A stretch of DNA of 64,000 nt from a bacterium HR40. GTDB lineage: Bacteria > Pseudomonadota > Alphaproteobacteria > Geminicoccales > Geminicoccaceae. Positions within the stretch are counted from its first letter, which is position 1, and each line of letters opens with the position of its first letter. The notes below the pieces were generated by a model that made no database searches, was not told the origin of the DNA, and saw only the letters and a program-made list of their open reading frames with translations. The translations under genes were made by a program, and so were the position numbers. Of the stretch, positions 7,056 to 34,222 are shown piece by piece. The DNA is taken from contig BEIQ01000004.1 of assembly GCA_002898275.1 (NCBI GenBank), positions 1 through 64,000 of the forward strand, in the 5' to 3' direction.

Positions 7056-7070
7056 AAGAAGGAGGAGAGC

Positions 7071-7253
7071 ATGGGCGGCCGCATCGCCGGTATCCTCGCG
7101 ACCCTGGTCTTCGCCGCTTACACCGGCTTTCTCGCCTGGCGGACGGGCTCGCCGGCACTCATGGTGATCGTCGCGGTCACGCTCCTCCTCGCCGTCGTCG
7201 ACCTGTGGCAGACGGAGTTCCTCCGGCGCGAGAACAGCATCCGCCGCGGCTAG
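7071..7253 (+). CDS. Small two-helix membrane protein
   Basis: A 60-aa protein with strong ribosome site GAAGGAGGAGAGC before the ATG, 15 nt after the amidase stop. It has two hydrophobic helices (IAGILATLVFAAYTGFLAW and ALMVIVAVTLLLAVVDLW) and a short basic tail. I do not recognise a family. Spacing suggests it belongs to the TRAP-amidase operon and may associate with the membrane complex, which is inference only. Confidence 0.65.
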   Translation: MGGRIAGILATLVFAAYTGFLAWRTGSPALMVIVAVTLLLAVVDLWQTEFLRRENSIRRG

Positions 7254-7290
7254 AGCGCGGGAGCCGGACGGACTCGGCCGGAGCGGCCAG

Positions 7291-8091
7291 TCAGCGGACG
7301 GCGCGCCGTCGTTCGCTGAGCCACACCCAGAGGCTTGCGAACACCACGGTCGCTAGCACGAACAACACGCCCACGACGTTGATCACGGGCGAGAGGCCGA
7401 AGCGGAAGCGGCTGCCGATCTCGGTCACCAATGTCCAGTCGCCGCCGATCGAAAACACGGTGGTGTTGTAGTTCTCGAACGACTGCAAGAAGGCGATGAC
7501 CGCTGCCGTTGCCGCGGTCGGCGCGAGGAAGGGTAATAGGATACGGCGGAAAAACAGGAAGGCCGAGGCACCGAGATCGTAGGCCGCCTCTTCGAGGGTG
7601 GGGTCGAAGCGTTGCAACCGAGCGAGGAACATCAGCATGGCATAGGAGGCGATGAAACTCGACTGGGCGAGGGTAGCGGTGAATTTTCCGGCCGGCACGC
7701 CGAGTTCGCGCCAGAAAATGAGGGTCGAGATGCCGAGGATGATGCCGGGAGTGAGGATGGGCGAGACCATCACGGCATAGAGGAAGCCGGCGGCACGACC
7801 GCGGAGCTGCTGCAGGACGAGGGCGCCAGCCAGGCCGAGCGGCAGGGAGATCGCCACCACCCCGGCTGCGATGACGAGGGAATGCGCGAGCCCGCGCAGC
7901 AGCCGCTCGTCCTGGAGGAGGGCCGGAAACCAGCGGAGAGTGAAGCCGCCCCATTGAGTGACCGACGGATAGGGATAGTCATTGAAGGCGGCGAGGCTCA
8001 TCACGAGAAGCGGCGCGAACATATAGGCGAGGAACAGAGCCACGTAGAGATCGAGAAGGAAACGTGCGGCTCGCGAGCCGCCGCCGTTCAT
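7291..8091 (-). CDS. Polyamine-type ABC transporter permease (PotC-like)
   Basis: A 266-aa inner-membrane permease with about six helices, of the spermidine/putrescine/2-aminoethylphosphonate type. The EAA loop is EEAAYDLGASAFLFFRRILLP near residue 170. Start at 8091 gives a normal N-terminus and overlaps the upstream permease stop by 4 nt (ATGA). It is the last gene of a four-gene operon, in order binding protein, ATPase, permease, permease. No clear terminator was seen between it and the convergent 60-aa gene. Confidence 0.9.
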   Translation of the reverse strand: MNGGGSRAARFLLDLYVALFLAYMFAPLLVMSLAAFNDYPYPSVTQWGGFTLRWFPALLQDERLLRGLAHSLVIAAGVVAISLPLGLAGALVLQQLRGRAAGFLYAVMVSPILTPGIILGISTLIFWRELGVPAGKFTATLAQSSFIASYAMLMFLARLQRFDPTLEEAAYDLGASAFLFFRRILLPFLAPTAATAAVIAFLQSFENYNTTVFSIGGDWTLVTEIGSRFRFGLSPVINVVGVLFVLATVVFASLWVWLSERRRAVR

Positions 8092-9134
8092 CGCGCGATC
8101 TCCCGGATGCCGACGCGGAACAGGCGCATCACCAGGCCGACGAACACGAGGCAGGCGAGCAGCAGCGAAAAGGCATAGGCCGCACCGATATTCCAGTTGT
8201 TGGCCTCGAAAAACTGGCGGTAGACGAGCTGGCTGAACCAGTCGCCGCCGAGGCCGCGGCTCATGATTTGGGGTACGGAATAGGAGCCGGCGCTGAGCAT
8301 GAAGGTCATGACGCAACCCACCGCTATTCCAGGTCGGGCATGCGGAACGACCACGCGCCGATGCAGCAGCCAGGTGGACGCGCCGAGATCGCGCGCCGCC
8401 TCCACTTGATGCTCGTCGAGGCTCTCGAAGGCGTTATAGAGGGGGAACACCATGAACAGAATGTAGGCATAGACCATCGCCACGAAGGTCGTGAACGGGT
8501 AGGTGAGGAACGGGATCCCGCCGGACTGGCGGTCGACGAGGCCGAGGCGCACGAGCAGCGCATTGAGCAATCCCTCGTAGTCGAAGATCATGAGCCAGGC
8601 ATAGACCCGCAGCAATTCGTTGATGGCATAGGGAATCACGAGGGCGAGGAGGAGGAGCGCCCGACCGCGGCGGCTGCGGGCGCGGGCCGCTGTCCATGCC
8701 ACGGGATAGCAGACGGCCAACGAAAGCAGCGTGACCAGCACCGAATAGGCGAGGGTGCGCAAGAACACTTGGAGGTGCAGCCCGCTCATGCGGGCGTAGT
8801 TGGCGAAACCGTAGACCTTGACGGGCTGTTGCTCGCGCGCCTCGAGAAGGGCGATTTCTTCCCGCAAGCGGGCGATCTCGTCCTCGAGGAGCGGGCGTCG
8901 CTCCACCGGTGCTGCCTGCAGGTCGAGCTCGCGCAGCATCACCTCCTGATAGAGCCGGTCGATGCGCTGGGACAACGCGGTCGCCTGCGGGTCGCGTTCG
9001 AGCCACCACAGCGAGGTCTCGATCATGAAGAGCTGGGGCAACAGCACGAGCCCGAAGACCCAGATCGCGGCGAGCAGCCAGCAGAGGCCCGAGAGCAGTC
9101 GACGATCCAGGGAGGCGAGAGCGCCGCTGCTCAT
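8088..9134 (-). CDS. Polyamine-type ABC transporter permease (PotB-like)
   Basis: A 348-aa inner-membrane permease. The first helix is followed by a periplasmic segment of roughly 100 residues, rich in charged coiled-coil-like sequence (IARLREEIALLEAREQQ). This is longer than in typical PotB. The cytoplasmic EAA loop is HQVEAARDLGASTWLLHRRV near residue 245. The start at 9134 overlaps the ATPase stop by 4 nt. It pairs with the PotC-like permease as a heterodimeric channel. Confidence 0.9.
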   Translation of the reverse strand: MSSGALASLDRRLLSGLCWLLAAIWVFGLVLLPQLFMIETSLWWLERDPQATALSQRIDRLYQEVMLRELDLQAAPVERRPLLEDEIARLREEIALLEAREQQPVKVYGFANYARMSGLHLQVFLRTLAYSVLVTLLSLAVCYPVAWTAARARSRRGRALLLLALVIPYAINELLRVYAWLMIFDYEGLLNALLVRLGLVDRQSGGIPFLTYPFTTFVAMVYAYILFMVFPLYNAFESLDEHQVEAARDLGASTWLLHRRVVVPHARPGIAVGCVMTFMLSAGSYSVPQIMSRGLGGDWFSQLVYRQFFEANNWNIGAAYAFSLLLACLVFVGLVMRLFRVGIREIAR

Positions 9135-10291
9135 CGCTCGTCGGCGAGCGGACCGGGTGGAAGGATGCGGGCGTCGCCGGCCGAGAAGCCGACCTCGACC
9201 TCGGCCGCCAGGGCATGGACATCCCCCTCGTTCAACCACTGCACCTGCAGCCGCTGGCCTTGGCTGGTCTCGATGGTGAACAGCAAAAAGGGCCCTTCGA
9301 AGGCGCGCTCCACCACCCGACCGCGGATGCGGTTATCGTGCCCCGCCGCGGGGCGGAGCCGCTCGGGCCGCACGAACAACAATCCTTCGGCGCCTTCCGC
9401 GAGGTCCTGCGGGTTGCGGGCGCGAAAGTTCCCGAGCGGCGTCTCGGCGAGGCACTCCGTCCCGGCTTTGCGCCGCACACGCGCTGGCACCAGATTGCTG
9501 CCGCCGACGAAGGTGGCGACGAAGGCGGTCGCCGGCTCTTCGTACAGGCGCTCGGGCGTATCGACCTGCTCGATGCGGCCGCGGCGCATCACCGCCACCC
9601 GGTCGGACATGGTGAGCGCTTCTCCTTGGTCGTGGGTGATGTAGACGAAGGTGATGCCCACCCGCCGCTGGATCGCCCGGAGTTCGTGGCGCATGTGCTG
9701 CCGCAGCTTGAGATCGAGGGCCGAGAGCGGCTCGTCCAGCAGCAGCACCGACGGTTCCACTGCGAGGGCCCGAGCGATCGCCACCCGCTGCCGCTGCCCC
9801 CCCGAGAGCTCGGCGGGTTTCTTGTCGGCACTGCCGGCGAGGGCGACGAGTTCGAGCAACGCCTCCGCCCGCCGACGACGCTCGGCTTTGGCAACCCCGC
9901 GCGCCTCGAGGCCGAAGGCCACGTTCTCCCACACGCTCATGAGCGGGAACAGGGCGAGGTTCTGGAAGATCAGCGCCGTCGGTCGGCGGCTCGGCGGAAT
10001 GCCGGCCATGTCGCGTCCGCCAATGAGGATGCGTCCGGTCGTCGGCTTGAGGAAGCCGGAGATCAGGCGGAGAAGGGTGGTCTTGCCGCAGCCCGAAGGG
10101 CCGAGCAGGGAGAAGAATTCGCCGGCGCGGATGTCGAGATCCGTAGGCTCGACCGCGACCAGCCGGTCGAAGCGCATCGACACTCGTTCGAGCCGGACAT
10201 CGAGCCCGTGCAGGCCGGAGGAGCTGACAGCCGGAGCCGGGACCGCGGCTCCGGCCGGAGCGACATCAGAGATTGGTGAGCTTCTCCACAT
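9131..10291 (-). CDS. Polyamine-type ABC transporter ATP-binding protein (PotA-like)
   Basis: A 386-aa ATPase with Walker A GPSGCGKTTLLRLISG near residue 70, signature ELSGGQRQRVAIARALA, Walker B VLLLDEPLSALD and an H-loop histidine in VYITHDQ. A C-terminal TOBE region (residues about 280-380) is typical of PotA/CysA-type proteins. The start is uncertain: the ATG at 10291 lies inside the end of the binding-protein gene (26-nt overlap) and has a weak ribosome site, while conserved sequence begins only near residue 30. It energises the adjacent permeases. Confidence 0.92.
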   Translation of the reverse strand: MWRSSPISDVAPAGAAVPAPAVSSSGLHGLDVRLERVSMRFDRLVAVEPTDLDIRAGEFFSLLGPSGCGKTTLLRLISGFLKPTTGRILIGGRDMAGIPPSRRPTALIFQNLALFPLMSVWENVAFGLEARGVAKAERRRRAEALLELVALAGSADKKPAELSGGQRQRVAIARALAVEPSVLLLDEPLSALDLKLRQHMRHELRAIQRRVGITFVYITHDQGEALTMSDRVAVMRRGRIEQVDTPERLYEEPATAFVATFVGGSNLVPARVRRKAGTECLAETPLGNFRARNPQDLAEGAEGLLFVRPERLRPAAGHDNRIRGRVVERAFEGPFLLFTIETSQGQRLQVQWLNEGDVHALAAEVEVGFSAGDARILPPGPLADER

Positions 10292-11426
10292 ACTGGGCGC
10301 GCAGTTCGGCGAAGAACGGTGTCTGCGGCGGCCACCACCACAGATTGTCGATCGCTGCCTGGTCTGGATAGGCCATGCGGAAGGCCGCTTTGTTCTGTTC
10401 GCTCAAATGCTGATCGGCCCCGACCGCTGCCGAATTGTAACCGGTATTGTTGGCGAACATGCCGCCGATTTCGGGCTGCAAAAGGAAGTTCATGAAGGCA
10501 TAGGCCTGGTCGACATTTTCCGCCCCGGCGGGGATTGCCATGGTATCGAGCCAGGCGAGGCCGCCTTCTTTGGGCATGGTGTAGATCCACTTCGGATCTC
10601 GGTCCCGGTGCAAGAGGATGCCGGTGGTGTCCCAGGTCTGGCCGATGGTGCAGCCGGCATCGGTAAAGGCGGCCGTCGCTTCGGTCGCATTGTTCCAAAA
10701 GGCGCCGATGTTGGACTTGTGCTTGGCGGCGAACTGGAGGCAGGCCTCGAACACCCGCCGGCATTCGGCCTCCGACTCGTAGAGCGCCATGCCCCGCTTG
10801 CTCGGAACCTGGCCCGTGGCATCGAGGTAGATGGCGAGGCTCACGAGGATCGACTTCTGGCGCACCGCGACCTGCTTGGTGAGGCCTTCCTGCCACAGAT
10901 GGCCGTAGGAAAGCTGGCCGTAGGCGAGGCCGGAAAAACGGGAGGAATCGAAGGTGATGGCCTCCGTGCCCCAGTCGAACGGGACGAGATAGCGGCGACC
11001 GCGGTGCGCCGCACCGAGCGTCAGGCTCTGGCGGTAGATCGAGGGAATGACGCGGTCGACCGCCAGCTTCTTCTCGTCGATGGGCTGCAAGAGATTGTCC
11101 TTGTAGTAATTGGGGCCGGTATCGACCGACGGGAAGATGACGTCGAAGCCTTTGCCGCCCGCTGCCCGGAGTTTGTTCTCGCACTCCTCGTTGGAGCCAT
11201 AGGTCGAGAGATTGACCCGGATCCCCGTCGCCTTCTCGAAGGCCTCGCGGATATTGTCCTGGATGTAATCGCCCCAGGCGAAGACGTTGACGACTCCCGA
11301 GGTCGCGAGCGCGTCGCGACGCCGGAGGACGAAGGGGAAGCCGAGGAGGCCGGCGGCACCGCCAGCTAGGGCGAGCTGCAGCGCACGTCTGCGGTCCAAG
11401 CCTCGATCAGCGGCACTCTGGGTCAT
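10266..11426 (-). CDS. Polyamine-type periplasmic binding protein (PotD/PotF-like)
   Basis: A 386-aa substrate-binding protein. The N-terminus contains DRRRALQLALAGGAAGLLG, a twin-arginine-like export signal. The mature part has the family-1 polyamine-binding pattern VVNVFAWGDYIQDNIREAFEKATGI and a late hinge helix. The ATG at 11426 is preceded by GGGAGG. It opens the four-gene ABC operon and lies 117 bp downstream of mmsA on the same strand. Substrate class (polyamine or related amine) is inferred from family. Confidence 0.88.
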   Translation of the reverse strand: MTQSAADRGLDRRRALQLALAGGAAGLLGFPFVLRRRDALATSGVVNVFAWGDYIQDNIREAFEKATGIRVNLSTYGSNEECENKLRAAGGKGFDVIFPSVDTGPNYYKDNLLQPIDEKKLAVDRVIPSIYRQSLTLGAAHRGRRYLVPFDWGTEAITFDSSRFSGLAYGQLSYGHLWQEGLTKQVAVRQKSILVSLAIYLDATGQVPSKRGMALYESEAECRRVFEACLQFAAKHKSNIGAFWNNATEATAAFTDAGCTIGQTWDTTGILLHRDRDPKWIYTMPKEGGLAWLDTMAIPAGAENVDQAYAFMNFLLQPEIGGMFANNTGYNSAAVGADQHLSEQNKAAFRMAYPDQAAIDNLWWWPPQTPFFAELRAQYVEKLTNL

Positions 11427-11543
11427 CGCGACCTCCCGGTAACAGTGGTGGCACGGCAAGCCTGCCCGTTTGCCGCGACAGGCCATGGGCGATCGTGTGA
11501 CGGGATGATGATCGCGTCAATGCGCTTGCCGTTGCTTCACCCC

Positions 11544-13040
11544 TCAATGATGAGTGGGCATGCGGAACTCGGCCGCGATCGCACCCTCCGGCCAACGCGA
11601 GGTGATCGCCTTGAGGCGGGTGTAGAAGCGGATCCCCTCCATGCCGTGGGTATGATGATCGCCGAAGAGCGACCGCTTCCAGCCGCCGAAGCTGTGGTAG
11701 GCGACCGGCACCGGGATCGGCACATTGATGCCGACCATGCCGATGTTGACCATGTGAGCGAAGTTGCGGGCCGTCGCACCATCGCGGGTGAAAATGGCGA
11801 CGCCGTTGCCGTATTCGTGGCGGTTGACGATGTCGACGGCACCCTCGAGGTCTGGCATGCGCACCACCGACAGCACCGGGCCGAAGATCTCTTCCTTGTA
11901 GATGCGCATCTCCGGAGTGACCCGGTCGAACAGGCAGCCGCCAATGAAAAACCCGTTTTCGTAACCTTGCATGCGGAAGTCGCGGCCGTCGACCACGAGC
12001 TCGGCCCCTTCCTTCACCCCGAGGTCGACATAGCGACGCACCCGCTCGAGATGCTCGCGGGTCACGAGCGGTCCCATCTCCACGCCCGGCTCGGTTCCCG
12101 GACCGATGCGGATCTGGCGGACCCGCGGCGCGAGTCTCTCGATGAGCGCATCCGCGGTCTTCTCGCCGACCGGCACCGCCACCGACACCGCCATGCAACG
12201 CTCGCCGGCCGACCCGTAGGCAGCGCCCATCAAGGCATCGACGGCCATGTCGAGGTCGGCATCCGGCATGATCACCATATGGTTCTTCGCCCCGCCCAAG
12301 GCCTGCACGCGTTTGCCGTGCGCGGTCCCCGAGCGGTAGACCTGTTCGGCAACCGCTGTAGAGCCCACGAAGCTCACGGCCGCGATGTCGGGATGGGCGA
12401 GGATGGCTTCGACCGTCTCGCGGTCGCCATTGACGACATTCAAGAGCCCTTCCGGGATGCCGGCTTCGAGTGCCAGCTCGGCGAGCGCCATCGGGCAGGA
12501 AGGATCCTTTTCCGACGGCTTGAGGACGAAGCCATTGCCGCAGGCGACAGCAAGGGGAAACATCCACAGCGGGATCATCGCCGGGAAATTGAAGGGTGTG
12601 ATACCGGCGCACACGCCGAGGGGAAAGCGCTGCGACACGAGATCGACGCCGGTACCTACCTGGAAACTGAACTCGCCCTTGAGCAGGTGCGGTAGCCCGC
12701 AAGCGAATTCCACCACCTCGAGCCCGCGGATGAGCGAGCCGCGGGCATCCTCCAGGGTCTTGCCATGTTCCTCGGTGATGAGCCGCGCGAGCCGGTCGAG
12801 GTTCTTCTCGATCAGCTCCTTGAGGCGGAACATGACGCGGGCGCGGCGGATGGGCGGGGTATCGCCCCAGGCGCGCTGCGCTTCTTTGGCGGCCTGAACG
12901 GCGCGATCGACCTCGGCGGCGCTGGCGAAGGCGACGCGGCCCGTCTGTTCGCCGGTTGCCGGATTGAAGATCGGTCCGAAGCGGCCACTCGTGCCCGCGA
13001 CTTGGCGGCCGCCGATGAAGTGCCCGATATCCTTGCCCAT
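11544..13040 (-). CDS. mmsA: CoA-acylating methylmalonate-semialdehyde dehydrogenase
   Basis: A 498-aa aldehyde dehydrogenase of normal MmsA length. It converts methylmalonate (or malonate) semialdehyde to propionyl- (or acetyl-) CoA with NAD+ in valine, inositol or beta-alanine breakdown. Diagnostic stretches are [54 protein letters not shown] and the catalytic-cysteine motif GSAGERCMA near residue 285. The ATG at 13040 has GGGGAG upstream. The same-strand amine importer 117 bp downstream may feed polyamine or beta-alanine catabolism through it (inference). Confidence 0.93.
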
Positions 13041-13144
13041 CCTTCGCTCCCCGCCTGCTCGCGCAGGTCCCGCGCGTGTCTGCCTGTTCCTCCTCTTAGG
13101 CGCTCCACCCCGCCGCCGTCCAGTGCAGGCCGCCCGACCCGAGG

Positions 13145-13891
13145 TCAGCTCGCTTCCGCTGCGAGGCGCAGGAGTGCCGACTCGAGGCGAGCGAGATCCT
13201 GCGGCCGCGACAGGCGGTGATCCCCATCGCCGACGAGCTCGACGCAGAGGTGCGGCGCTCGCAGCTTGGCGGCGAGCTCGAGCGACAGGGTAAAAGCTAC
13301 GTCCCGGTCGCAGCGTCCGTGCAGGATATGGACGGGGCAGGGTAGTTCGCTCTCCCCTTCCAGCCACAGATGGCGTCTGGCCTCCTCGATGAGTGCCCGG
13401 GTAAAGGCGTAGGGCTCGCCATAGTCCGAGGGCAGGTAGACGATCCCCTCCTGCAGCAAGCGTGTCCGGGTGGGAGCATCGAGACGCTGCCAGACGAGCC
13501 GTTCGGTGAAATCCGGCGCCGGGGCGACGAGGAGCAGGGCGCGGACGCGCTCCCTGCGGGCACGGGCGAGGAGGAGCGCGATCCATCCCCCCATCGACGA
13601 GCCGACGAGCACGAGCGGACCTTGCGTCACGCGATCGACGATCGCGAGCGCGTCCTCGAGCCAGCGGCCGATGGTACCTTCCTCGAAACGACCCGAGGAG
13701 GCCCCGTGACCCCGATAGTCGAAGCGCACGCAAGCGAGGCCCGTGCGAGCGCACAGATGGTCGAGGAATGTCGCCTTGGTGCCAGCCATGTCGGAACGGT
13801 AGCCCGGAAGGAAGAGTACCGTCGGGGATCGGCCGGGCCGGCGGGCGAAGGCGAGATAGCCGCCATCGGCAAGCTCGAGACGTTCGGACAA
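13145..13891 (-). CDS. Alpha/beta hydrolase (ABHD10-like)
   Basis: A 248-aa single-domain alpha/beta hydrolase. The oxyanion region is [16 protein letters not shown], the strand-3 motif is [13 protein letters not shown], and the nucleophile elbow is GSSMGG near residue 100. The acid is in [10 protein letters not shown] and the histidine in GDGDHRLS. The pattern resembles ABHD10-type palmitoyl-protein thioesterases/acyl-glucuronide esterases. I chose the TTG at 13891 because AAGGAGA lies 7 nt upstream and the N-terminus aligns with the family; no in-frame ATG fits. Confidence 0.82.
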
Positions 13892-14059
13892 GGCGGATCT
13901 CCTTCGACAGGGAACGGCGATGGTGTCGGCGGAGTGTCGGGAGCTTCCGGCGTCGCAGGTCCTCGCTCCCTCGCCGCCATTTCCTCTCTTCCTCGGTGAA
14001 ACCGACGGCGGGAAGTCTATCTGGTAGCAGGGAGCTCGTTCGTCGAAGGAGGCTCGGTC

Positions 14060-14299
14060 ATGTTCCGTCTCCCGCAACAGCTCGCGGTCGCCTCGATCCT
14101 CGCGGTATGGCTCGCCGGCTGTGCCACGCCCGATCACAAGACAGCCGAGCGCACCCTCACCGGTGCGGCGATCGGCGCGGCGAGCGGGGCCGCGGTGGGT
14201 CTCGTCACGGGTGGCGTGGTCACCAAGGGGGTGGTCGGCGCGATCGGCGGGGCCGCGGGCGGCTTCGCCTACGACCAGCTGCAAAAGAACAAGCGCTGA
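14060..14299 (+). CDS. Small glycine-zipper lipoprotein
   Basis: A 79-aa lipoprotein. The signal peptide ends in the lipobox LAGC at residues 18-21. The mature part has alternating small residues (AAIGAASGAAVGLVTGG and AIGGAAGG), a glycine-zipper helix pair as found in SlyB/OsmB/YMGG-type envelope lipoproteins. A ribosome site (GAAGGAGG) precedes the ATG. It stands alone, divergent from the hydrolase. Its role is probably in envelope structure or stress, which is inference from family. Confidence 0.82.
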   Translation: MFRLPQQLAVASILAVWLAGCATPDHKTAERTLTGAAIGAASGAAVGLVTGGVVTKGVVGAIGGAAGGFAYDQLQKNKR

Positions 14300-14331
14300 G
14301 ATGGTCGCCGCCGGTCGCCGATAGGCGGGCG

Positions 14332-15174
14332 TCAGCTGGCTTTGGCCGCATGCCGGTAGCATAGCCAATAGACGAGCCCGACGAGAATCCCGCCACCGAT
14401 CATGTTGCCGAGGGTGACGGGCAGCAAATTGTCCAGCACCATCCCGGCAAGCGTGACGCTCTCGGCTCCTCGGATCAGACCCAAGGCGATGAAGTACATG
14501 TTCGCCACCGAATGTTCGAAGCCCAGGGCGACAAAGGCGGAGATGGGAAAGAGGATGGCGAGGATCTTGCCGGTGACGTCGCGCGCCGCAAAGGTCAGCC
14601 AGACGGCGAGGCAGACGAGGACGTTGCAGAGGATGCCGCGCACCAGCGCCTCGACAGGATCGAGGCGGAGCTTGGCCACGGCGATGGCATCGGCGGTGGC
14701 GCCCAGCTCGCCACCGGCGAGGCCGAGGGTGCCCGAGAGATGCACCAAGAGGGCAGTGCCGGCGGCTCCGGTCAAGTTGCCGAGATAGACGATGGCCCAG
14801 TTGCGCAGGAGCTCGCGGGTGGTGATGAGACCGTCGACGCGAGCCATGACGAGGAGGTTGTTGCCGGTAAAGAGCTCGGCCCCGGCTACCACCACCAGCA
14901 CCAGACCCAGGGAGAACGCGATACCGCCGAGCATGCGCGAGGGCCCGAAGCCGAGGCCGTGGAGGGTGAGGACCAGGGTGAAATACATCGCTCCAAAGGC
15001 GATGAAGGCACCCGCCAACACCGCGAGCACGAAGGTGGGCAGGATGGCGAGGCGAGCCTTGGCCACCCCCGCCTGTTCCACGAGGACGGCGATCTGCGCC
15101 GGACGATAGGCATCGATCCCGAGGGCAGCGGCCGCCACCGGAAGCGTGGTGTCGGTCTTTTCCGTTTCCTTCAT
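14332..15174 (-). CDS. Formate/nitrite (FNT) family channel
   Basis: A 280-aa inner-membrane protein with six helices. Family marks are AELFTGNNLLVM and the pore-histidine motif GFEHSVANMYFIALG near residue 205. FNT proteins pass small monovalent anions such as formate, nitrite or hydrosulfide. Its start overlaps the stop of the upstream MFS exporter by 4 nt, so the two are translationally coupled, an unusual pairing. No formate- or nitrite-metabolising enzyme lies next to it, so the anion is unknown. Hydrosulfide is worth considering because fccAB is in the same window. Confidence 0.92.
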   Translation of the reverse strand: MKETEKTDTTLPVAAAALGIDAYRPAQIAVLVEQAGVAKARLAILPTFVLAVLAGAFIAFGAMYFTLVLTLHGLGFGPSRMLGGIAFSLGLVLVVVAGAELFTGNNLLVMARVDGLITTRELLRNWAIVYLGNLTGAAGTALLVHLSGTLGLAGGELGATADAIAVAKLRLDPVEALVRGILCNVLVCLAVWLTFAARDVTGKILAILFPISAFVALGFEHSVANMYFIALGLIRGAESVTLAGMVLDNLLPVTLGNMIGGGILVGLVYWLCYRHAAKAS

Positions 15175-27074: not shown

Positions 27075-27323
27075 GTCAGACACTCCCGATCCCCACGTCT
27101 GAGTGTGATATTTTGCTAACCCTAGCTCGCCCGACCGTCAACGGGAAAAATCGGGGTAAGTCGCCGACGGAACGAAACCGCAGGTTCAATTCCCCGAGCG
27201 GATCTCCTCGACGGCGAAGATCGTGCGCGAAGGTGCTCTCTCGCTCGAGCTCCGTCGGCAGCGTTGCCAGGAGCGGGTGTCCGGCGGCGCGGACGGACTT
27301 CGGTCGGAATTCCCGCCCGCTCG
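27075..27323. other. Intergenic region left of the livH-linked repeat
   Basis: This stretch carries the promoter region of the minus-strand exported protein. A relatively AT-rich segment around 27100-27125 is the likely site. Nothing else recognisable is present, and no coding sequence with a ribosome site was found. Confidence 0.5.
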
Positions 27324-27502
27324 CCGCCGATGGGGCGATCGGCGCGGGCGAGGGGGGTCGCGGGTGGGGTTGTGGGTCGGCCGGCGCCGTGCTACCAGCG
27401 CCGCCGACCATCGAGCCGGGCCGATGGCGGGGGATCTGCTGCAATTCCTGTTCGCCGGGATCACGGTGGGCGCGATCTACGCCCCGATCGCGCTCGGCTT
27501 TT
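27324..27502 (+). repeat. Left copy of 179-bp direct repeat (livH upstream region plus first codons)
   Basis: This segment matches 33247-33425 at a constant offset of 5923 nt with only two differences, at 27340 and 27485; at both, C here is T in the right copy. It contains about 100 bp upstream of livH and the first 26 livH codons. The similarity continues more weakly to the CGAGCCA at 27514. The right copy belongs to the intact operon, so this is the broken one. Confidence 0.95.
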
Positions 27503-27520
27503 GTCCCGTCTCCCGAGCCA
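27424..27520 (+). pseudogene. Truncated 5' fragment of livH
   Basis: From the ATG at 27424 the translation starts MAGDLLQFLFAGITVGAIYA, identical to intact livH over its first 20 residues. It diverges after a P-for-L change and a 4-nt shortening and ends at CGAGCCA, where island sequence begins. It cannot make a permease. It marks the left boundary of the insertion. Confidence 0.9.
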
Positions 27521-27635
27521 GCTGGAAAAGCTCGGGTTCGGCGCCGAGCACGCCGGCGATCCTGTCGGCGCGAGCGAACGAGGTCCGATTTCGCACCTGC
27601 GTTCTTTCTCTCTCGGTCCATCGTCCCGGCGAGAC

Positions 27636-28232
27636 CTAAGGCTCCGGTTCGCGGGCGGCGGAAGGTTGCCCGCTGCATCCTGCCGTCACGTCCCCAGCGC
27701 ACCCCGATGCATGTCCATTCGGAGGGAGCGGACTTTTTCGGGAGTGCCGCCGCGGGCCAGCTGCCGCCGACGATCGGCGCGATGACGCCGGCGCTCGGTG
27801 TCGCGCTTCCCGCAGAAAGGACTCGATCCTCCGTGCGACCGCCGATGCATCGGCTTCCACCTGGCATTGCCACACCACGATCGTTTTCCACCCGAGGATT
27901 TTCAGTGCCGACAACTTCCGGCGATCGCGCTGGACGTTGGCTGCGAACTTCGCGCGCCAGTAGTCCACGTTGGAACGAGGCATGGTGGCGAGACGGCAAC
28001 CCTCGTGGCGATGCCAGAAGCACCCGTGCACGAAGACGGCGACGCGAGCCCTCCGAAAGACGATGTCAGGGCTGCCGGGCAGGTCGCGGGCGTTCTTGGA
28101 GAACCGCAACCCCAGGGCTCGCAAGCTGCGCTGCACCGACCGTTCGGGACCGGTGTCGCGCCGACCCACCGCTCTCATGATGCGGGAGCGTTCGGGGGTC
28201 GTGGCTGGAGGGCGTTTCGGTTCGCGAACCAT
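27636..28232 (-). CDS. vsr: Very short patch repair (Vsr) endonuclease
   Basis: A 198-aa protein. Residues 1-146 are a Vsr nickase: PERSRIMRAVGRRDTGPE, then LPGSPDIVF with the catalytic Asp56, HGCFWHRHEGC (zinc and active-site residues), and NVDYWRAKFAANVQRD. Vsr cuts next to T:G mismatches created by deamination of 5-methylcytosine and accompanies Dcm-type methylases. Residues 147-198 are a Ser/Arg/Pro/Gly-rich tail not seen in normal Vsr (about 130-150 aa), probably read-through after loss of the original stop. The start lies 58 nt inside the methylase gene. Confidence 0.92.
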   Translation of the reverse strand: MVREPKRPPATTPERSRIMRAVGRRDTGPERSVQRSLRALGLRFSKNARDLPGSPDIVFRRARVAVFVHGCFWHRHEGCRLATMPRSNVDYWRAKFAANVQRDRRKLSALKILGWKTIVVWQCQVEADASAVARRIESFLREARHRAPASSRRSSAAAGPRRHSRKSPLPPNGHASGCAGDVTAGCSGQPSAAREPEP

Positions 28233-29515
28233 GGCTGCGCTCCTCGGAGAAGGGCAGCAAGAGCTGCAAGCGTCACAGCGTACCCGAGAATCGGGGGGAC
28301 CGCGTCGCCGATCCATTTGACCAGTGCCGATTTCTTGGGCGGGCGTCCGGGCGACGGGTGGAAGTCGAACCAGTCCGGAAACCCCTGGAGTCTCGCTGCC
28401 TCGCGGGGCGTGAGCGGGCGTCTCAGGGATGGATGAATGAATCTGCCGCGGCCGGGGGTCACGAAACCCGACGTGATCGTTCCGGCTGGCCGATCCCAGT
28501 ACAGGCGGCCATAGACCGAGGGATAGGTGTGGCCGTCGCGATGGCAGCGTGGTCGGATATCGTCTGGCAGCTCGTACAGATCGTTATCGAACAAATAGTC
28601 GATCCGACGGCGATTCTCGGCCGAGAGCGCCGGCACGGAATCCATGAGCTGATCCGACTCGTTGTCGACCAAGTCCTCGATCGCCCAGCGGACGGTAGCA
28701 GGATCTCGCGCCAAGGCGCTGGCCACTCGCTTTAGATCGACGGCTCCCACTCGAGATCCCACGACGAAGAAGCGCTTGCGGGTTTGAGGCCACCCGAGGC
28801 CGTCTGCAGCGAGAACGCCTCGTGTCGTGGAATAACCGGCATGTTCCAGCAGGGCTACGGCTGTTCCGAGGACGCCGATCCGATCGTTGACGATATCCGG
28901 CACGTTTTCCAAGACGATCGTTTTTGCCCCGATCGCTACAGCCGTGGCCACAGCGTCCAGGTAGAGCAAGTTCCTCGGGTCGTCGCGTCGCGTCCGATTG
29001 TTGAGGTTCGAATGCCCCTCGCAGGGCGGCCCAGCCAACAGAAGATCCACCTCGCCCTGCGCCGCCCGCATCGTCCCGTGCAGCGGTTCCGGATCGTACG
29101 CGAAGCGCGCACGCGCTCCCCAGCCCAGAACTTTGTAATCGACCAAACCGGAAACGTTCGCGCCGAGAGTCCGCTCGGGCCCCAGATTGCGAGCGTAGAC
29201 GGCCAAGGCCTCGGTATCCATGTCGATCGCCAAGCGAACGGTCGGCCGGATCCCGACGGCGAGACAAGCTTCGATGGCACCGAGGGTCAGGCCTCCGCAT
29301 CCACAGAAGACATCCGCGATCGCTACATTCCCTGCCGCCGGGGCCTCGAGTTCGGTGCGCTTTCCGAAAAGATAGGAGCGCCACCATCTCGCCCACGAAG
29401 AGTGTCTACCACCGAGCCCGGACACATCTTCGATCCGACTGTGGAATGCCTTTCCCTCGACGAACAAGGTGCGTCGAACAGCGTGCGCGCGGCTCTCGTA
29501 AGATTCGCGGATCAT
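28175..29515 (-). CDS. DNA (cytosine-5) methyltransferase
   Basis: A 446-aa C5 methylase with motifs in canonical order. Motif I is DVFCGCGGL (residues 68-76), motif IV GPPCEGHS with catalytic Cys165, motif VI ENV (203-205), motif VIII QTRKR and motif X GDAVPP. The target-recognition region lies roughly at 285-350; the recognised site cannot be read. An N-terminal extension of about 65 residues precedes motif I. The start overlaps the upstream unknown gene by 4 nt. Together with vsr it forms the modification/repair part of the island. Confidence 0.95.
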   Translation of the reverse strand: MIRESYESRAHAVRRTLFVEGKAFHSRIEDVSGLGGRHSSWARWWRSYLFGKRTELEAPAAGNVAIADVFCGCGGLTLGAIEACLAVGIRPTVRLAIDMDTEALAVYARNLGPERTLGANVSGLVDYKVLGWGARARFAYDPEPLHGTMRAAQGEVDLLLAGPPCEGHSNLNNRTRRDDPRNLLYLDAVATAVAIGAKTIVLENVPDIVNDRIGVLGTAVALLEHAGYSTTRGVLAADGLGWPQTRKRFFVVGSRVGAVDLKRVASALARDPATVRWAIEDLVDNESDQLMDSVPALSAENRRRIDYLFDNDLYELPDDIRPRCHRDGHTYPSVYGRLYWDRPAGTITSGFVTPGRGRFIHPSLRRPLTPREAARLQGFPDWFDFHPSPGRPPKKSALVKWIGDAVPPILGYAVTLAALAALLRGAQPWFANRNALQPRPPNAPAS

Positions 29516-30276
29516 TGGTCGTCACGGGACGCGATGACAGCTCGCTTCGCCGCATCGGCTTCTTTCGCGACGAGCAGGTACGCACTCTCCTCGTCCAAAT
29601 ACTCGAACAGGACGTTCGGATGCAACCTGCGAAGCCGCTTCGCCAGTTCGCGGATCTCCAGAATACTCAGGGTGGGTCGGTCCGACGATCCGTCGGGGAA
29701 CTGGTAACGCACGAGCGCCCGCACCAGCGAGCGACACATGCCGTAGCCTTGCCGGGACACGTGACTGCGCCAGAAATCCTGGTCGCCGCGTCGTGCCAGT
29801 TCGTACGGGTCGCCCTCGCCTGGTCGGTAACCGGCATCGGCCCGAAGCCACATCCGATAGAGGAGGTTCTCTTTCCCGCTTCCGATGCCGAAGTTCGCGG
29901 CAGCAGCTCTTCCCGCGTCGCCGCCGTGCCGCCAATCCACCAGTTCCCGAAAGCGAAAGACGGCGAGCCAGCTCCAGAACTCGTAATCGGCGAGCATGTC
30001 GGGATCGAAGGGGAGAAGTCGATGGATCTCGGAGCAGGCCTCCGCCTCGAACCGCCCACCCGCTGGATCGCGAAGGCCGAGACGGTTCGGATATCTCGAT
30101 TTTATCCTGTACAGGGCTTCCTCGAGCGCTGGGAGTACGTCCTGTACGTGATCCGTTCCCGCACCGCGAGCTTCCAGAACCTGCTCCTCGGCCGGACTCT
30201 CGCCTCGTCGGAGCGCCTCCAGCGTTTCCGCCGCGTATTTCCACTTGAGCGCGGTGTAACGCATGGTTCGCCTCAA
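29512..30276 (-). CDS. Island protein B, unknown (possible DUF6339-like)
   Basis: A 254-aa soluble protein, mainly helical and rich in Arg, Trp and Tyr. The central part ENLLYRMWLRADAGY followed by DPYELARRGDQDFWRSHVSR looks like a conserved core. I have a weak recollection that it resembles the uncharacterised DUF6339 family. No nuclease motif is obvious. It has 4-nt overlaps with both neighbours, so it is made in step with the GHKL ATPase and the methylase. It may be the restriction or targeting factor (inference). Confidence 0.75.
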   Translation of the reverse strand: MRRTMRYTALKWKYAAETLEALRRGESPAEEQVLEARGAGTDHVQDVLPALEEALYRIKSRYPNRLGLRDPAGGRFEAEACSEIHRLLPFDPDMLADYEFWSWLAVFRFRELVDWRHGGDAGRAAAANFGIGSGKENLLYRMWLRADAGYRPGEGDPYELARRGDQDFWRSHVSRQGYGMCRSLVRALVRYQFPDGSSDRPTLSILEIRELAKRLRRLHPNVLFEYLDEESAYLLVAKEADAAKRAVIASRDDQ

Positions 30277-31202
30277 TGCCTCCTAGCGATCTTCACGATG
30301 CTTCGCCGCGCTTCGGTGGCAGCCTGGGCGAAAGCCCGAATGCTCGCGACGTCTCCCTCTTCCACGTGTCTGCGCAAGGCCTCGAGGGACGCGCCCGTCG
30401 CGCGCGTCACTCTCTCGATCGCCGTGTCCAGCAGGCCGCCTCGTTCCGGGTGCGCAGATGGCTCCAGAGCGCGCAAGCCTCGGAACACTATCTCTGCCAG
30501 GATCTCGGTGAGGATGAGCGACATGACGCCACGTCCATGGTCCGTGTCTTCGGCGGCCGCGAGAGCGTCGTACACGTCGGCTCTCAGACACACTCGGAGG
30601 GCGTCGCCCGGATCGTCGAAGCGCTGATCGAGGTCTTCCGAAATGAAATCGATCCAATAGGCAGTATCTTTCGGAAGTTCCCGTTTGACGAAGTCATCGG
30701 CCGTCCAACGTTCGATGGGAAAGCGTCGGGGAGACGATCTCGGACGTACCGAGAAATCCTTTCGAGCTACCCAATGCCCCTTCAGGAAAGGCTGGCCGCT
30801 TCTCGGCCGGCGATCCTCCCTCAACACCAAGGCCACCGTGGCTTCCACTCCGGTTTTCCACGAAAAGCGCCTCCGCACGTCCGGCGGTACCGTCCAAGCT
30901 TCGGGTGCAGCATCGGGAGCGCTGTGGAATATCAGTTCGCTGCGGTGCAGTCCGAGATCCGCGAGCCTGATGACCAGGGAGAGATCGGACGGAGCCACTG
31001 TACCGGCGACCTCGATCGCCGATCGATCGACCTTCAAGCGGAATTCCGGGCGGATATCGTTGAGTTGCGAAGCGTCGAACGAGGTCGACCCGTCGAAGTC
31101 GCGATCCGGAGACGGACGGAACTGCACGTCGGCCAGACACTCGTCGAGACTCGGAAAGGGCCTGACGATGCGGCTCTCGGTCCGAACCCGATTTCGTCTC
31201 AT
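30273..31202 (-). CDS. Island protein A, unknown
   Basis: A 309-aa soluble protein I do not recognise. The first half is beta-rich (ECLADVQFRPSPDRDFDGST; IEVAGTVAPSDLSLVIRLADLGLHRSE). The second half is helical (DDPGDALRVCLRADVYDALAAAE; GVMSLILTEILAEIVFRGL). No cysteine cluster, P-loop or clear nuclease motif is seen. It sits between the GHKL ATPase and protein B with 4-nt overlaps on both sides, so it is probably a dedicated partner of the ATPase. Confidence 0.75.
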   Translation of the reverse strand: MRRNRVRTESRIVRPFPSLDECLADVQFRPSPDRDFDGSTSFDASQLNDIRPEFRLKVDRSAIEVAGTVAPSDLSLVIRLADLGLHRSELIFHSAPDAAPEAWTVPPDVRRRFSWKTGVEATVALVLREDRRPRSGQPFLKGHWVARKDFSVRPRSSPRRFPIERWTADDFVKRELPKDTAYWIDFISEDLDQRFDDPGDALRVCLRADVYDALAAAEDTDHGRGVMSLILTEILAEIVFRGLRALEPSAHPERGGLLDTAIERVTRATGASLEALRRHVEEGDVASIRAFAQAATEARRSIVKIARRH

Positions 31203-32995
31203 ACCCGCACCTCGCTCGGCTGAACTTCAACGATGACCTTTACCGACCAGCCGGCGTCGTAGGGTCCGCTTCGCAATGCGAAGGCGAGCCACTCGTCTTT
31301 GCAGAGCGCAGCGCGGAACTCGGGTTCGGTAGAGGCCTCCCGAGGTACTTCGGCCTGCGCGCATTCGATGGTCACTGGAAGGAGTTCGTCCTCGCTCCCG
31401 CGATCGTCCTTGAGCACCGGGACCCGCACCCGAACCACGGCATCCAAGCGGTCGTTCTCGGCGTCGGCCCGGAGCTTGAGGGCCACCTTCGCGCATGTCT
31501 CGACTTCGCCGGAGGATGCCGGGCGCTGCACAGGCCCTTCGCGGAAGCGGATCTCCACCGGTTCGCTCTCGGGTTCGCGCCGATCTCCGTCGCGCAGGTT
31601 CGGTCGCAGCAGCGTCGCCAGTTGGGTTTCGAGAAACTGCAAGCGGCGTTCTTCGCGCGGCTTCGGCGGGGTCGCTTGCGTCTGGAATTTTCGCATCTGG
31701 TCCTTCAGCCGCTTGAGCACGTCGCGGACGACGTCCTTGGCGGTCTGCGCGTCGCCTTCGGCGGTATTGAGCCGCTCGCAGTTGGGATCCCAGCGGTCGT
31801 GATTCGGTGGCTCCGACAGCTTCAGGATCCCATCGATGTCCAAAGCGGCGACGAACACGCCGACGGTCGGCGGTACCGAGCGGCCGAGGGGTGCATACTG
31901 AACGACCATTTTGGGCGAACGAAGAAGCGCTACGCATCCTACTTTGTCTTCGGGAAACTCTTCGACGATATCCTCGCTCAGCAACACGAAAGCGTATTCG
32001 CCTAGCGCGAGTCCCCGCAGCCGGTTGAACCTGTCGCGCCTCTGGTGGGGCCCCATGGGTTCGGCGCGCCCTACCGCGAGCGAATAACATTCGATGAAAG
32101 GAAGCAAGTCCGACCGCCGCTTCGGCTGAGGGTAGTGCGTCTCTCCAGCGGTTTCGACTTGTACTTCCAGTTCGTGATCGATCAACCTCGGCCACCACCA
32201 GTCCTCGATCGCCGTCAGCAGCGGTCGATGGTCCCGCAAATCCGAATCCACGATGAGGATCGACGTACCGTGCTCGCCGCGCCTGCGAGGCCGGAAGCCG
32301 AGGCGTTCGGCCAATTGGTGCGCATCCTCGTCGCGCAGCGGGTCGACCACCAGCGGGTTCCTCGAGCGGGGAACCCCGAACCAGGCGCGTCCGGTCCATT
32401 GTTCCCCTCGGAATTCATGGGCTTGGAGATACGCGCACCCCATCAGTCGGGCGGTAGCGCCTGTCTCGTCCGGCTCGAACGAACTGTAGGCGACGATCGT
32501 GCAGATGCGCGAATTCAACGACAGGGCGGATTTCCCGTAGCCGTACGATCCACCGGTTCGCGCGCCCTCGAGAATCTTGGCGGTGTCCCCGAGGGACAAA
32601 AGCAGGCGATAAAAGTGGGATGTCCGGGTATGGGGGTCGCCGCGGAGCCCGACCGTACCGTAGTCTTCCACGAACACCAGAGACAGCGGCTGCGACGTGC
32701 TCGCGAGACAGTTATCCCGTCGGACTTTCAGTGACGAGAGTCGCTCGTGGAAAGATCGCTCGAGTTGCAGGTCGGCGAGGAAGCGCTGCCTGTCAGCGCC
32801 TTCCAGGTTCACGATACGGAAAACCACGCGCACCCGTCTCTCGCCTTCTTTCGCGGCATCGCACGAATTCTGGATCGCCTCGCGCGCGAGCTCGACTGCA
32901 GGGCTCGGTCCCTGGAGGGTGTTGACGAACGCATGTCCGGTGGCACCGCCCATCGGTCCGACGGGCTCGAAAATCCACTCGAACGCTTCTGCCAC
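31199..32995 (-). CDS. GHKL-fold ATPase (MORC/MutL-like) of the defence island
   Basis: A 598-aa protein with a Bergerat ATP-binding fold in its first 170 residues. The N-box is REAIQNSCDA (Glu39, Asn43, Asp46), G1 is EDYGTVG (Asp111, Gly113, Gly116) and G2 is GGSYGYGKSA (148-157). The rest (about 200-598) is unrecognised, with a helical stretch near VRDVLKRLKDQMRKF and a beta-rich C-terminus. GHKL ATPases of this kind are known beside Dcm and Vsr genes as prokaryotic MORC-type components. The GTG at 32995 has GGGGGAG 8 nt upstream. It is the first gene of the operon. Confidence 0.85.
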   Translation of the reverse strand: MAEAFEWIFEPVGPMGGATGHAFVNTLQGPSPAVELAREAIQNSCDAAKEGERRVRVVFRIVNLEGADRQRFLADLQLERSFHERLSSLKVRRDNCLASTSQPLSLVFVEDYGTVGLRGDPHTRTSHFYRLLLSLGDTAKILEGARTGGSYGYGKSALSLNSRICTIVAYSSFEPDETGATARLMGCAYLQAHEFRGEQWTGRAWFGVPRSRNPLVVDPLRDEDAHQLAERLGFRPRRRGEHGTSILIVDSDLRDHRPLLTAIEDWWWPRLIDHELEVQVETAGETHYPQPKRRSDLLPFIECYSLAVGRAEPMGPHQRRDRFNRLRGLALGEYAFVLLSEDIVEEFPEDKVGCVALLRSPKMVVQYAPLGRSVPPTVGVFVAALDIDGILKLSEPPNHDRWDPNCERLNTAEGDAQTAKDVVRDVLKRLKDQMRKFQTQATPPKPREERRLQFLETQLATLLRPNLRDGDRREPESEPVEIRFREGPVQRPASSGEVETCAKVALKLRADAENDRLDAVVRVRVPVLKDDRGSEDELLPVTIECAQAEVPREASTEPEFRAALCKDEWLAFALRSGPYDAGWSVKVIVEVQPSEVRV

Positions 32996-33103: not shown

Positions 33104-33125
33104 GGCGGGTCCAGCTGCTGCCGCG

Positions 33126-33206
33126 CGAGCCACGCGATCGATCCCGCCCGAAGCGGCTGCGCGATGTCGGGTGGCATGGGCACGGTGTTCGCCGCGGGAG
33201 CCGGAG
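33126..33206 (+). pseudogene. Diverged internal fragment of livH at the right island border
   Basis: This segment aligns with intact livH at 33441-33521 (offset 315) without gaps. CGAGCCA is shared, the next 36 nt are about 61% identical, then 27 nt (33169-33195) are identical. In frame it reads RASHAIDPARSGCAMSGGMG against SASHVINFAQGEFVMLGGMG in LivH. In the 36-nt part 12 of 14 differences are transitions. It continues the livH copy that breaks off at 27520 on the other side of the island. Confidence 0.8.
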
Positions 33207-33246
33207 TGTCTGCGCCGAGGAGTCGCCCTTCGGCTCCCCGGCTTCT

Positions 33247-33425
33247 CCGCCGATGGGGCGATTGGCGCGGGCGAGGGGGGTCGCGGGTGGGGTTGTGGGT
33301 CGGCCGGCGCCGTGCTACCAGCGCCGCCGACCATCGAGCCGGGCCGATGGCGGGGGATCTGCTGCAATTCCTGTTCGCCGGGATCACGGTGGGCGCGATC
33401 TACGCCCTGATCGCGCTCGGCTTTT
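33247..33425 (+). repeat. Right copy of 179-bp direct repeat (livH upstream region and 5' end)
   Basis: This matches 27324-27502 with two differences. It supplies the leader and first 26 codons of the intact livH. The leader is very G-rich and holds no recognisable -35/-10 pair; any promoter in it would be duplicated on both sides of the island. Confidence 0.95.
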
Positions 33426-34222
33426 CTCTCGTCTACAGCGCGAGCCATGTGATCAACTTCGCCCAGGGCGAATTCGTGATGTTGGGTGGCATGGGCACGG
33501 TGTTCGCCGCTGCCGCCGGATTGCCCCTGCCGATCGCCGCCCTCGCGGCCCTCGTCCTCGCCGTCCTCGCGGCCATGGGCCTCGAGCGCTTGGCCATTCA
33601 CCCGGCGCGGGACGCCGGGCTCACCGGGCTCGTCATCGTCACCATCGGCGCATCGATCCTCATCCGCGGCCTCGCGGGCATCGTCTTCGACCGCAACTTC
33701 CACACCCTGCCCGCTCTGAGCGGCGACGCCCCCTTGCTCGTCGCCGGCGCCACCTTGCATCCCCAGGCCCTCTGGATCCTCGCCGCTACCCTCCTCGTCG
33801 CCCTCGCTCTGTGGCTGTTCTTCGCCCGAAGCCTGACCGGCAAGGCGATGCTCGCCGCCGCCGTCGACCCGCTCGCCGCGGAGCTTGCCGGTATCGACCC
33901 GCGCCGCGTGGTGCTGTGGACCTTCGCGCTGGCCGGGGGCCTCGGAGCCCTCGCCGGTTTTCTCGTCACCCCGCTCGCCCAAACCCACTTCCAGATCGGG
34001 GTGCTGCTCGGATTGAAGGGCTTCGCCGCGGCGATCGTGGGTGGCCTCGGCTCGGCACCGGGAGCGATGGCCGGCGGGCTCGTCATCGGCCTCGTCGAGC
34101 AGCTCACGGCCGGCTATCTGAGCTCGGCCTACAAGGACGCCGTGGCCTTCGTCGTCATCGTCCTCGTGCTGTTGCTCCGCCCGAGCGGGCTGTTCGGCAC
34201 GCGCGCCATCGAGCGGGTCTAG
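33347..34222 (+). CDS. livH: Branched-chain amino acid-type ABC transporter permease LivH
   Basis: A 291-aa inner-membrane permease with the LivH opening (FAGITVGAIYALIALGFSLVYSASHVINFAQGE) and the GLKGFAAAIVGGLGSAPGAMAGGLVIGLVEQL region before the last helices. The ATG at 33347 lies inside the 179-bp repeat, so the island insertion left this copy whole. livM follows after 5 nt. No binding-protein gene (livK) is present on either side, which is unusual for this operon type. Confidence 0.93.
   Translation: MAGDLLQFLFAGITVGAIYALIALGFSLVYSASHVINFAQGEFVMLGGMGTVFAAAAGLPLPIAALAALVLAVLAAMGLERLAIHPARDAGLTGLVIVTIGASILIRGLAGIVFDRNFHTLPALSGDAPLLVAGATLHPQALWILAATLLVALALWLFFARSLTGKAMLAAAVDPLAAELAGIDPRRVVLWTFALAGGLGALAGFLVTPLAQTHFQIGVLLGLKGFAAAIVGGLGSAPGAMAGGLVIGLVEQLTAGYLSSAYKDAVAFVVIVLVLLLRPSGLFGTRAIERV

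What the first reader, a model, noticed from the sequence alone, without database searches (positions are those of the whole stretch)
27636..32995. Compact GHKL ATPase / A / B / Dcm / Vsr operon: a candidate new anti-phage or epigenetic system
Seen: five minus-strand genes overlap (4 nt, 4 nt, 4 nt, then 58 nt), so they are made as one unit. The first has intact N-box, G1 and G2 motifs of a GHKL ATPase; the last two are a C5 methylase and a Vsr nickase. Known: MORC/MutL-like GHKL proteins have been described computationally beside Dcm and Vsr in restriction-modification-like loci, often with further helicase or nuclease genes. Inference: proteins A (30273-31202) and B (29512-30276) would have to supply target recognition or cleavage here, because no helicase, Z1-type ATPase or obvious nuclease is present.
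Basis: partly seen in the sequence, partly recalled or inferred. Interest (0 to 1): 0.85.

Follow-up and report, generated by a model that had tools for sequence, protein, structure and literature searches.

The report
Nuclease-free methylase-linked GHKL ATPase cassette
This is a five-gene cassette, found sporadically across many bacterial phyla, that pairs a DNA-marking enzyme with a MORC/MutL-like ATPase and two uncharacterised helper proteins; it probably protects cells against foreign DNA, yet it carries no recognisable enzyme for cutting up that DNA, and nobody has tested it.

Summary
Five intact minus-strand genes lie in one tight operon: G (paraMORC2-like GHKL ATPase), A, B (DUF6339), M (C5 methylase) and V (Vsr). 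The set is a real, mobile, conserved system. Starting from G alone, I mapped 97 loci across bacteria and haloarchaea: A in 89, B in 88, M in 84, V in 63.

Parts of it are already on record, untested. PADLOC catalogues G-A-B as candidate PDC-M33. A larger relative (Z1 ATPase + DUF4420 nuclease + methylase + three genes) appears to be the 'type I' candidate of Nat Commun 2022;13:5731.

What is new: the G tree separates three lineages. The window lies in a 'short' clade (21 rows, SH-aLRT 99) with a fixed methylase subtype and no linked Z1 or DUF4420. Neither occurs anywhere in the window's genome or in 9 of 11 other short-clade genomes. In relatives, the place upstream of G holds either Z1-DUF4420 or a newly seen ~75-aa protein, never both. 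B is fused to a methylase domain lacking its catalytic cysteine in Streptomyces.

A (Ig-like sandwich plus helices) and B (all-helical) look non-nucleolytic. Best reading: a methylation-guarded defence system without its own nuclease. New variant of a predicted kind.

The parts
31199..32995 (-). G: paraMORC2-like GHKL ATPase, 598 aa, GTG start; N-box E39/N43/D46, G1 111-119, G2 GGSYGYGK 148-155, ExxxH motif E395-H399 (SEPPNHDRW)
   Evidence: PADLOC PDC-M33A E=3.8e-23
30273..31202 (-). A: 309 aa, no Pfam/NCBIfam family; predicted Ig-like beta-sandwich (about residues 14-156) followed by a helical C-terminal part; family of about 93 members recovered by profile iteration
29512..30264 (-). B: DUF6339 (PF19866) protein; ATG start at 30264 preferred over TTG 30276; all-helical model, pLDDT 95.9; family-wide conserved W96, R111, R136, R140, R170, R204 (numbering of window:29512-30261, which starts one codon after that ATG)
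28175..29515 (-). M: C5-cytosine DNA methylase, 446 aa, all catalytic motifs intact, GPPCEGHSNL subtype (closest PADLOC model DruM)
27636..28232 (-). V: Vsr-type mismatch nicking endonuclease, conserved Vsr blocks intact
27321..27522 (.). Left copy of a 202-bp direct repeat: upstream region plus truncated 5' end of a livH-type permease gene
   Evidence: 193 of 202 identical to the right copy
33244..33445 (.). Right copy of the 202-bp direct repeat, overlapping the start of the intact livH-type gene (33347-34222, +)

Best explanation
The cassette is a methylation-guarded defence system. M methylates cytosines in the host's own DNA. G-A-B forms an ATP-gated complex that recognises DNA lacking this mark and blocks it. 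G is a MORC/MutL-like clamp; A is an Ig-like adaptor; B is a helical subunit that couples the complex to methylase-type DNA reading. V repairs the T:G mismatches that arise from deaminated 5-methylcytosine. In a large related lineage the same complex works with a Z1 ATPase and a DUF4420 nuclease. The window's lineage has neither, so here G-A-B most likely acts without its own nuclease: either by clamping or condensing the DNA so that it cannot be transcribed or replicated, or by calling in a host nuclease. Shown: the anatomy, the conservation, the subtypes, the absence of nuclease and helicase families. Inferred: complex formation, sensing of the mark, defence role, mode of inhibition.
For: G-A-B-M linkage from G-only searches: A 89, B 88, M 84, V 63 of 97 loci. 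All short-clade loci with enough downstream sequence carry M, always of the GPPC[QE]GHSNL-like subtype wherever that motif is covered. B is fused to a C5-methylase domain lacking the catalytic PC motif in four Streptomyces loci that also carry a second, intact methylase. Patchy horizontal spread: nearest relatives in Acidobacteriota and Verrucomicrobiota at 62-66% identity, near-identical copies in a gamma- and a betaproteobacterium. Defence-gene company: cassette in or beside type I hsd genes, and Thoeris ThsA, MADS, type I, II and IV restriction genes in the flanks of short-clade loci. Related Z1/DUF4420-bearing operons carry MzaC/MzaD-like parts. A and B lack nuclease families.
Against: No functional test exists. 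No structure of a G-A-B complex was modelled. Absence of nuclease motifs rests on family searches and models; an unknown nuclease chemistry in B (conserved Arg/His/Asp residues) is not excluded. Two of 11 tested short-clade genomes hold an unlinked Z1-DUF4420 pair. The flank survey had no matched control set.
Confidence: 0.55

Rival explanations
1. Vsr is the effector: the MutL-like G with A and B recruits and activates Vsr to nick unmodified DNA, making the cassette a nicking restriction system.
For: Vsr is intact and linked in 63 of 97 loci. MutL stimulating Vsr in E. coli is established knowledge. Vsr is the only nuclease in the window's operon.
Against: Six short-clade loci with at least about 4 kb of sequence downstream of G have no Vsr (L039, L040, L042, L043, L048, L049). 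Vsr accompanies many C5 methylases as a repair partner, and its place and strand vary freely while G-A-B stays fixed.
Confidence: 0.12
2. A selfish or regulatory modification module, not defence: M marks the genome and G-A-B reads the mark for gene regulation, or kills cells that lose the cassette.
For: The cassette is mobile (direct repeats; trees). Methylase-linked addiction is established for R-M systems.
Against: Defence-island company and defence-type relatives. A regulatory role would not explain the patchy, cross-phylum distribution.
Confidence: 0.2
3. A remnant: the window's operon is a decayed Z1-DUF4420 system that lost its ATPase and nuclease and is no longer functional.
For: Z1 and DUF4420 lie just upstream of G in the long lineage, and the window has only 248 bp between G and the repeat.
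Against: The short form is one well-supported clade, 21 rows, SH-aLRT 99, spanning Pseudomonadota, Acidobacteriota and Verrucomicrobiota. All motifs and frames in the window are intact. The third lineage (PDC-M33 type) mostly lacks Z1 and DUF4420 too. The own genome and 9 of 11 others lack both families.
Confidence: 0.07
4. B or A is itself a nuclease of an unrecognised kind, so the cassette is a compact restriction-modification system.
For: B has strongly conserved polar residues in the short clade (D162, R165, S166, H167, R170, R204, K208), and its fold has no clear PDB match.
Against: The family-wide invariants of B are mainly Trp and Arg with no acidic/Lys or His pair. A has almost no conserved polar residues. 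No profile match to any nuclease.
Confidence: 0.06

Closest known systems
PADLOC candidate PDC-M33 (A, B, C), PADLOC-DB 2.0.0
   Same: Same three-gene core GHKL-A-DUF6339; the Priestia homologues match all three models over full length and the window's G matches PDC-M33A
   Different: The window's A and B do not match the M33B/M33C models; methylase and Vsr are not part of the models matched here; the G tree puts the window in a separate clade. The candidate is untested as far as the library shows
Predicted 'type I' defence system of Nat Commun 2022;13:5731 (PMC9523054): Z1 + DUF4420 + C5 methylase + three genes, with DNA repair endonucleases
   Same: Same methylase class and Vsr association; its three unnamed genes are very probably G, A and B (our long lineage; identity of the genes inferred from the text, figure not held)
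   Different: Two of the three stated core genes, Z1 and DUF4420, are absent from the window, its genome and most of its clade
paraMORC2 GHKL family in R-M-like loci (Iyer et al. 2008, PMC2292703)
   Same: GHKL motifs, ExxxH motif, neighbourhood with cytosine methylases and Vsr
   Different: The text describes neighbourhoods with SFII helicases and RE-fold nucleases; it does not describe A or B or a helicase- and nuclease-free paraMORC2 operon
Mza (MzaABCDE, Gao et al. 2020)
   Same: The Z1 and DUF4420 proteins of the long relatives match MzaC and MzaD
   Different: The window has no MzaC/MzaD-like gene; G, A and B match no Mza model
VcSduA / paraMORC3 Shedu (PMC12137116)
   Same: A GHKL ATPase required for phage defence
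   Different: There the nuclease (DUF4263) is fused to the ATPase; here none is found

Membership tests
paraMORC2 (Iyer 2008) | Intact GHKL ATP-binding motifs | tested here: met
   N-box, G1 and G2 aligned and conserved across distant homologues
paraMORC2 (Iyer 2008) | Strongly conserved ExxxH motif C-terminal to the GHKL domain, in the S5 domain | tested here: met
   E395-H399 in the window; pattern in 90 of 95 G sequences; its place inside an S5 fold was not tested
paraMORC2 (Iyer 2008) | Lacks the MORC-specific GhXhhpXXRhl motif | tested here: met
   No match in G
paraMORC2 (Iyer 2008) | Sequence clusters with the original paraMORC2 proteins | not tested
   Their sequences are not given in the text held
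PADLOC PDC-M33 | PDC-M33A (GHKL) | tested here: met
   E=3.8e-23, partial, profile 24-233 of 627
PADLOC PDC-M33 | PDC-M33B and PDC-M33C | tested here: inconclusive
   No direct match of window A and B, but both are homologous by profile to Priestia proteins that match M33B and M33C
Nat Commun 2022 type I candidate | Z1-domain protein | tested here: not met
   None in operon or genome; the control genome C. glutamicum rang
Nat Commun 2022 type I candidate | PD-(D/E)XK DUF4420 protein | tested here: not met
   None in operon or genome; the same search finds it in long-lineage genomes
Nat Commun 2022 type I candidate | C5 methylase plus three further genes | tested here: met
   M, G, A and B present; that the three further genes are G, A and B is inferred
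Classical type II R-M | Linked site-specific restriction endonuclease | tested here: inconclusive
   No REase family match in the operon; an unrecognised nuclease is not excluded
Mza | Mza protein models | tested here: not met
   No Mza model among the matches shown for G, A, B or V (for M only the best 25 of 60 methylase models are listed); Z1 and DUF4420 (MzaC and MzaD-like families) absent
Shedu type with paraMORC3 | DUF4263 nuclease domain on the GHKL protein | tested here: not met
   No Pfam domain found in G, E up to 1
Anti-phage defence system | Protects cells against phage | not testable with these tools
   Needs plating assays

The most novel reading that the evidence does not exclude
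A bacterial counterpart of MORC/DNA-methylation silencing: an ATP-gated MORC-like clamp that, guided by A and B, traps or condenses DNA lacking the host's cytosine mark and so silences invading DNA without cutting it. Z1-DUF4420 or the small S protein are interchangeable add-ons in other lineages.
Probability: 0.22. Interest if true: 0.88.

Novelty: new variant of a known kind. Interest (0 to 1): 0.62.

Why it matters
Restriction-like systems are expected to cut. Here a conserved, horizontally spread clade keeps the methylase and a MORC/MutL-type ATPase complex but has no recognisable nuclease or translocase in the operon apart from the repair enzyme Vsr, nor a Z1 or DUF4420 gene in most of the host genomes. 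Either it blocks DNA by clamping, which would link bacterial defence with eukaryotic MORC silencing, or it contains a nuclease of an unknown kind. The small genetic unit (about 5.4 kb) makes both directly testable, and natural long, short and S-gene variants provide controls.

Tried and rejected
(1) A or B as a known nuclease: Pfam, NCBIfam, PADLOC and PDB sequence searches gave nothing except DUF6339 for B. Foldseek and VIA-align gave only an Ig-like/FnIII-like sandwich for A (best Z 7.8, 111 residues, rmsd 3.5) and no clear match for B (best Z 5.1); absence of a match is not proof of a new fold. (2) An unlinked Z1 or DUF4420 in the own genome: none. The DUF4420 control set was silent, so long-lineage genomes were added as positive controls and rang. 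(3) The small upstream gene S in the window: no match. (4) A functional replacement of A-B in Limisphaera (L032): G and V remain, but the Schlafen-type helicase gene has also removed A, B and the N-terminal third of M, so I read it as a broken locus. (5) Viral contigs: a scan with G found no relative; the phage collection gave one short unannotated contig. (6) A plain orphan Dcm-Vsr pair next to unrelated genes: rejected by the conserved G-A-B-M order and the B-methylase fusion. (8) An empty-site comparison was started but the nearest relatives are only 58-69% identical at livH, so the upstream regions were not compared.
Full report
Observation. Five intact minus-strand ORFs occupy 27636-32995. 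G/A and B/M overlap by 4 nt, and M/V by 58 nt from the Vsr ATG at 28232. The A/B overlap of 4 nt depends on a TTG start; the ATG at 30264, which fits the homologues, gives an 8-nt gap. GHKL motifs, methylase motifs and the conserved Vsr blocks are intact. Island GC is about 63-64% against about 67-70% in the flanks, and the island lies between two copies of a 202-bp direct repeat (193 of 202 identical) that contains the 5' end of a livH-type permease gene; the gene itself is intact to the right. This points to horizontal acquisition.

Identity of the parts. G has no Pfam or NCBIfam match but matches PADLOC PDC-M33A (E=3.8e-23). It carries E395-x3-H399, a pattern conserved in 90 of 95 homologues and described as the hallmark of paraMORC2 (PMC2292703); it lacks the MORC motif. 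A has no family. B is DUF6339, just below the Pfam cut-off in the window and above it in relatives. M is a C5 methylase of the GPPC[QE]GHSNL subtype, nearest PADLOC model DruM. V is Vsr (TIGR00632).

Is it a system? In a 398-genome sample of the same phylum, drawn without regard to A, B, M or V, G homologues occur in 11 genomes. All 10 others have a C5 methylase within the stretch fetched (up to 18.5 kb), seven have Vsr, and most have A and B. A scan of GTDB contigs with a G alignment gave 315 candidate relatives, of which 80 loci were kept. Together with plasmid hits this gives 97 mapped loci: A in 89, B in 88, M in 84, V in 63. Two of these rows are loci fetched twice (L020=L038, L024=L046). 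In many loci G/A and A/B overlap by 4 nt.

Subtypes. Most of the rest carry two genes upstream of G: a Z1-domain protein (PF10593, MzaC-like) and a DUF4420 protein (PF14390, MzaD-like, PD-(D/E)XK). A maximum-likelihood tree of G separates a long clade (59 rows, SH-aLRT 100), a short clade with the window (21 rows, SH-aLRT 99) and a third group that includes the PDC-M33 type. The short label needs one change on the tree against 19 in shuffles. The short clade spans Pseudomonadota, Acidobacteriota and Verrucomicrobiota; the window's nearest relatives are Pyrinomonas methylaliphatogenes, bacterium HR41 and Limisphaera (62-66% identity), while L035 and L040, from different classes, are nearly identical. 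Whole-genome searches found neither Z1 nor DUF4420 in the window's genome nor in 9 of 11 other short-clade genomes, with long-lineage genomes as positive controls; two have an unlinked pair, and one of the nine has a sub-threshold Z1-like match. So the nuclease and ATPase are not simply elsewhere.

A further gene. Seventeen rows (16 distinct loci) of the short and third lineages, and none of the long loci, have a conserved ~75-aa helical-looking protein (here called S) as the first gene of the operon, just upstream of G or of a Vsr gene preceding G. No Pfam family reaches its cut-off. The window and Pyrinomonas lack it. The upstream place is therefore held by Z1-DUF4420, by S, or by nothing.

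Links between B and the methylase. In four Streptomyces loci DUF6339 is fused to a C5-methylase domain whose catalytic PC motif reads LPRVK or similar, while a separate intact methylase follows. A dead methylase domain is most easily read as a DNA reader. This is the best available hint that B connects G-A to DNA recognition.

Structures. B: pLDDT 95.9, all-helical, no clear PDB match (best VIA Z 5.1 over 65 residues). A: pLDDT 91.5, Ig-like/FnIII-like sandwich over about residues 14-156 (best Z 7.8, 111 residues, rmsd 3.5), then helices. Weak matches do not establish function, and missing ones do not show a new fold. In the short clade B has conserved D162, R165, S166, H167 and R170, so an unknown activity is not excluded.

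Mechanism. M marks self DNA; G-A-B senses unmarked DNA and acts on it using ATP; V repairs deamination damage. Shown: gene content, intact motifs, linkage, subtypes, missing nuclease families. Inferred: everything about action. Because six short-clade loci with usable downstream sequence have no Vsr, Vsr is unlikely to be the obligate effector. With no other nuclease or translocase in the operon, clamping or condensation by the MORC-like ATPase, or recruitment of a host nuclease, are the remaining simple options.

Defence context. Pyrinomonas and Limisphaera carry the cassette in or next to type I hsd genes, and flanks of short-clade loci hold Thoeris ThsA, MADS components and type I, II and IV restriction genes. 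There was no matched control for this survey.

What is known. The G-A-B trio is PADLOC candidate PDC-M33: Priestia proteins match PDC-M33A, B and C over full length. The long form matches the text of the 'type I' candidate system in Nat Commun 2022;13:5731 (Z1, PD-(D/E)XK DUF protein printed as DUF4220, cytosine methylase, three further genes, associated with DNA repair endonucleases); that its three further genes are G, A and B is my inference. Searches of the open-access library for DUF6339 and PDC-M33 gave no paper, and no paper found describes a test. The short, Z1- and DUF4420-free form is not described in what I could read.

Verdict. Real, conserved, mobile; a new variant of a predicted defence kind, with an open and testable mechanism.

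Noticed in passing
L033, L034, L035, L036, L037, L038, L040, L041, L044, L047, L050, L005, L006, L026, L027, L029: 5' end of the operon: A conserved ~75-aa protein (core like MRDKR..FVELGEARV.KA.QMLRLIGNLSN..NYEYS.EDA.KI) is the first gene of the operon and never occurs with Z1-DUF4420. No known family reaches its cut-off.
   Followed up: partly
L080:10820-12679, L094:10829-12679, L096:8470-10329, L108 (B-methylase ORF ending at 12678): DUF6339 fused to a C5-methylase domain that lacks the catalytic PC motif, followed by a separate intact methylase gene (Streptomyces).
   Followed up: partly
L032:9445-11289: In Limisphaera a Schlafen-group-3 helicase gene with a PD-(D/E)XK-like N-terminal region replaces A, B and the N-terminal third of M, between G and the rest of M.
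   Followed up: partly
L031 around 7550-15076; L032 around 6700-14244: The cassette interrupts type I restriction (hsd) genes, leaving HsdM or HsdR pieces on its two sides.
   Followed up: partly
L003, L093, L097: Two G (A-B) cassettes lie on either side of a single methylase gene (haloarchaeon and picocyanobacteria); in L093 and L097 one is of the long lineage and one of the third lineage.
   Followed up: no
window 27321-27522 and 33244-33445; 33118-33218 and 33433-33533: Nested direct repeats of a livH 5' region at the island border; the left copy is a truncated gene start, the second pair is a degenerate 101-nt duplication (76%).
   Followed up: partly
L024/L046 (Paracoccus sanguinis): A decaying copy of the cassette: methylase split into two ORFs and G shortened at its N-terminus.
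   Followed up: no
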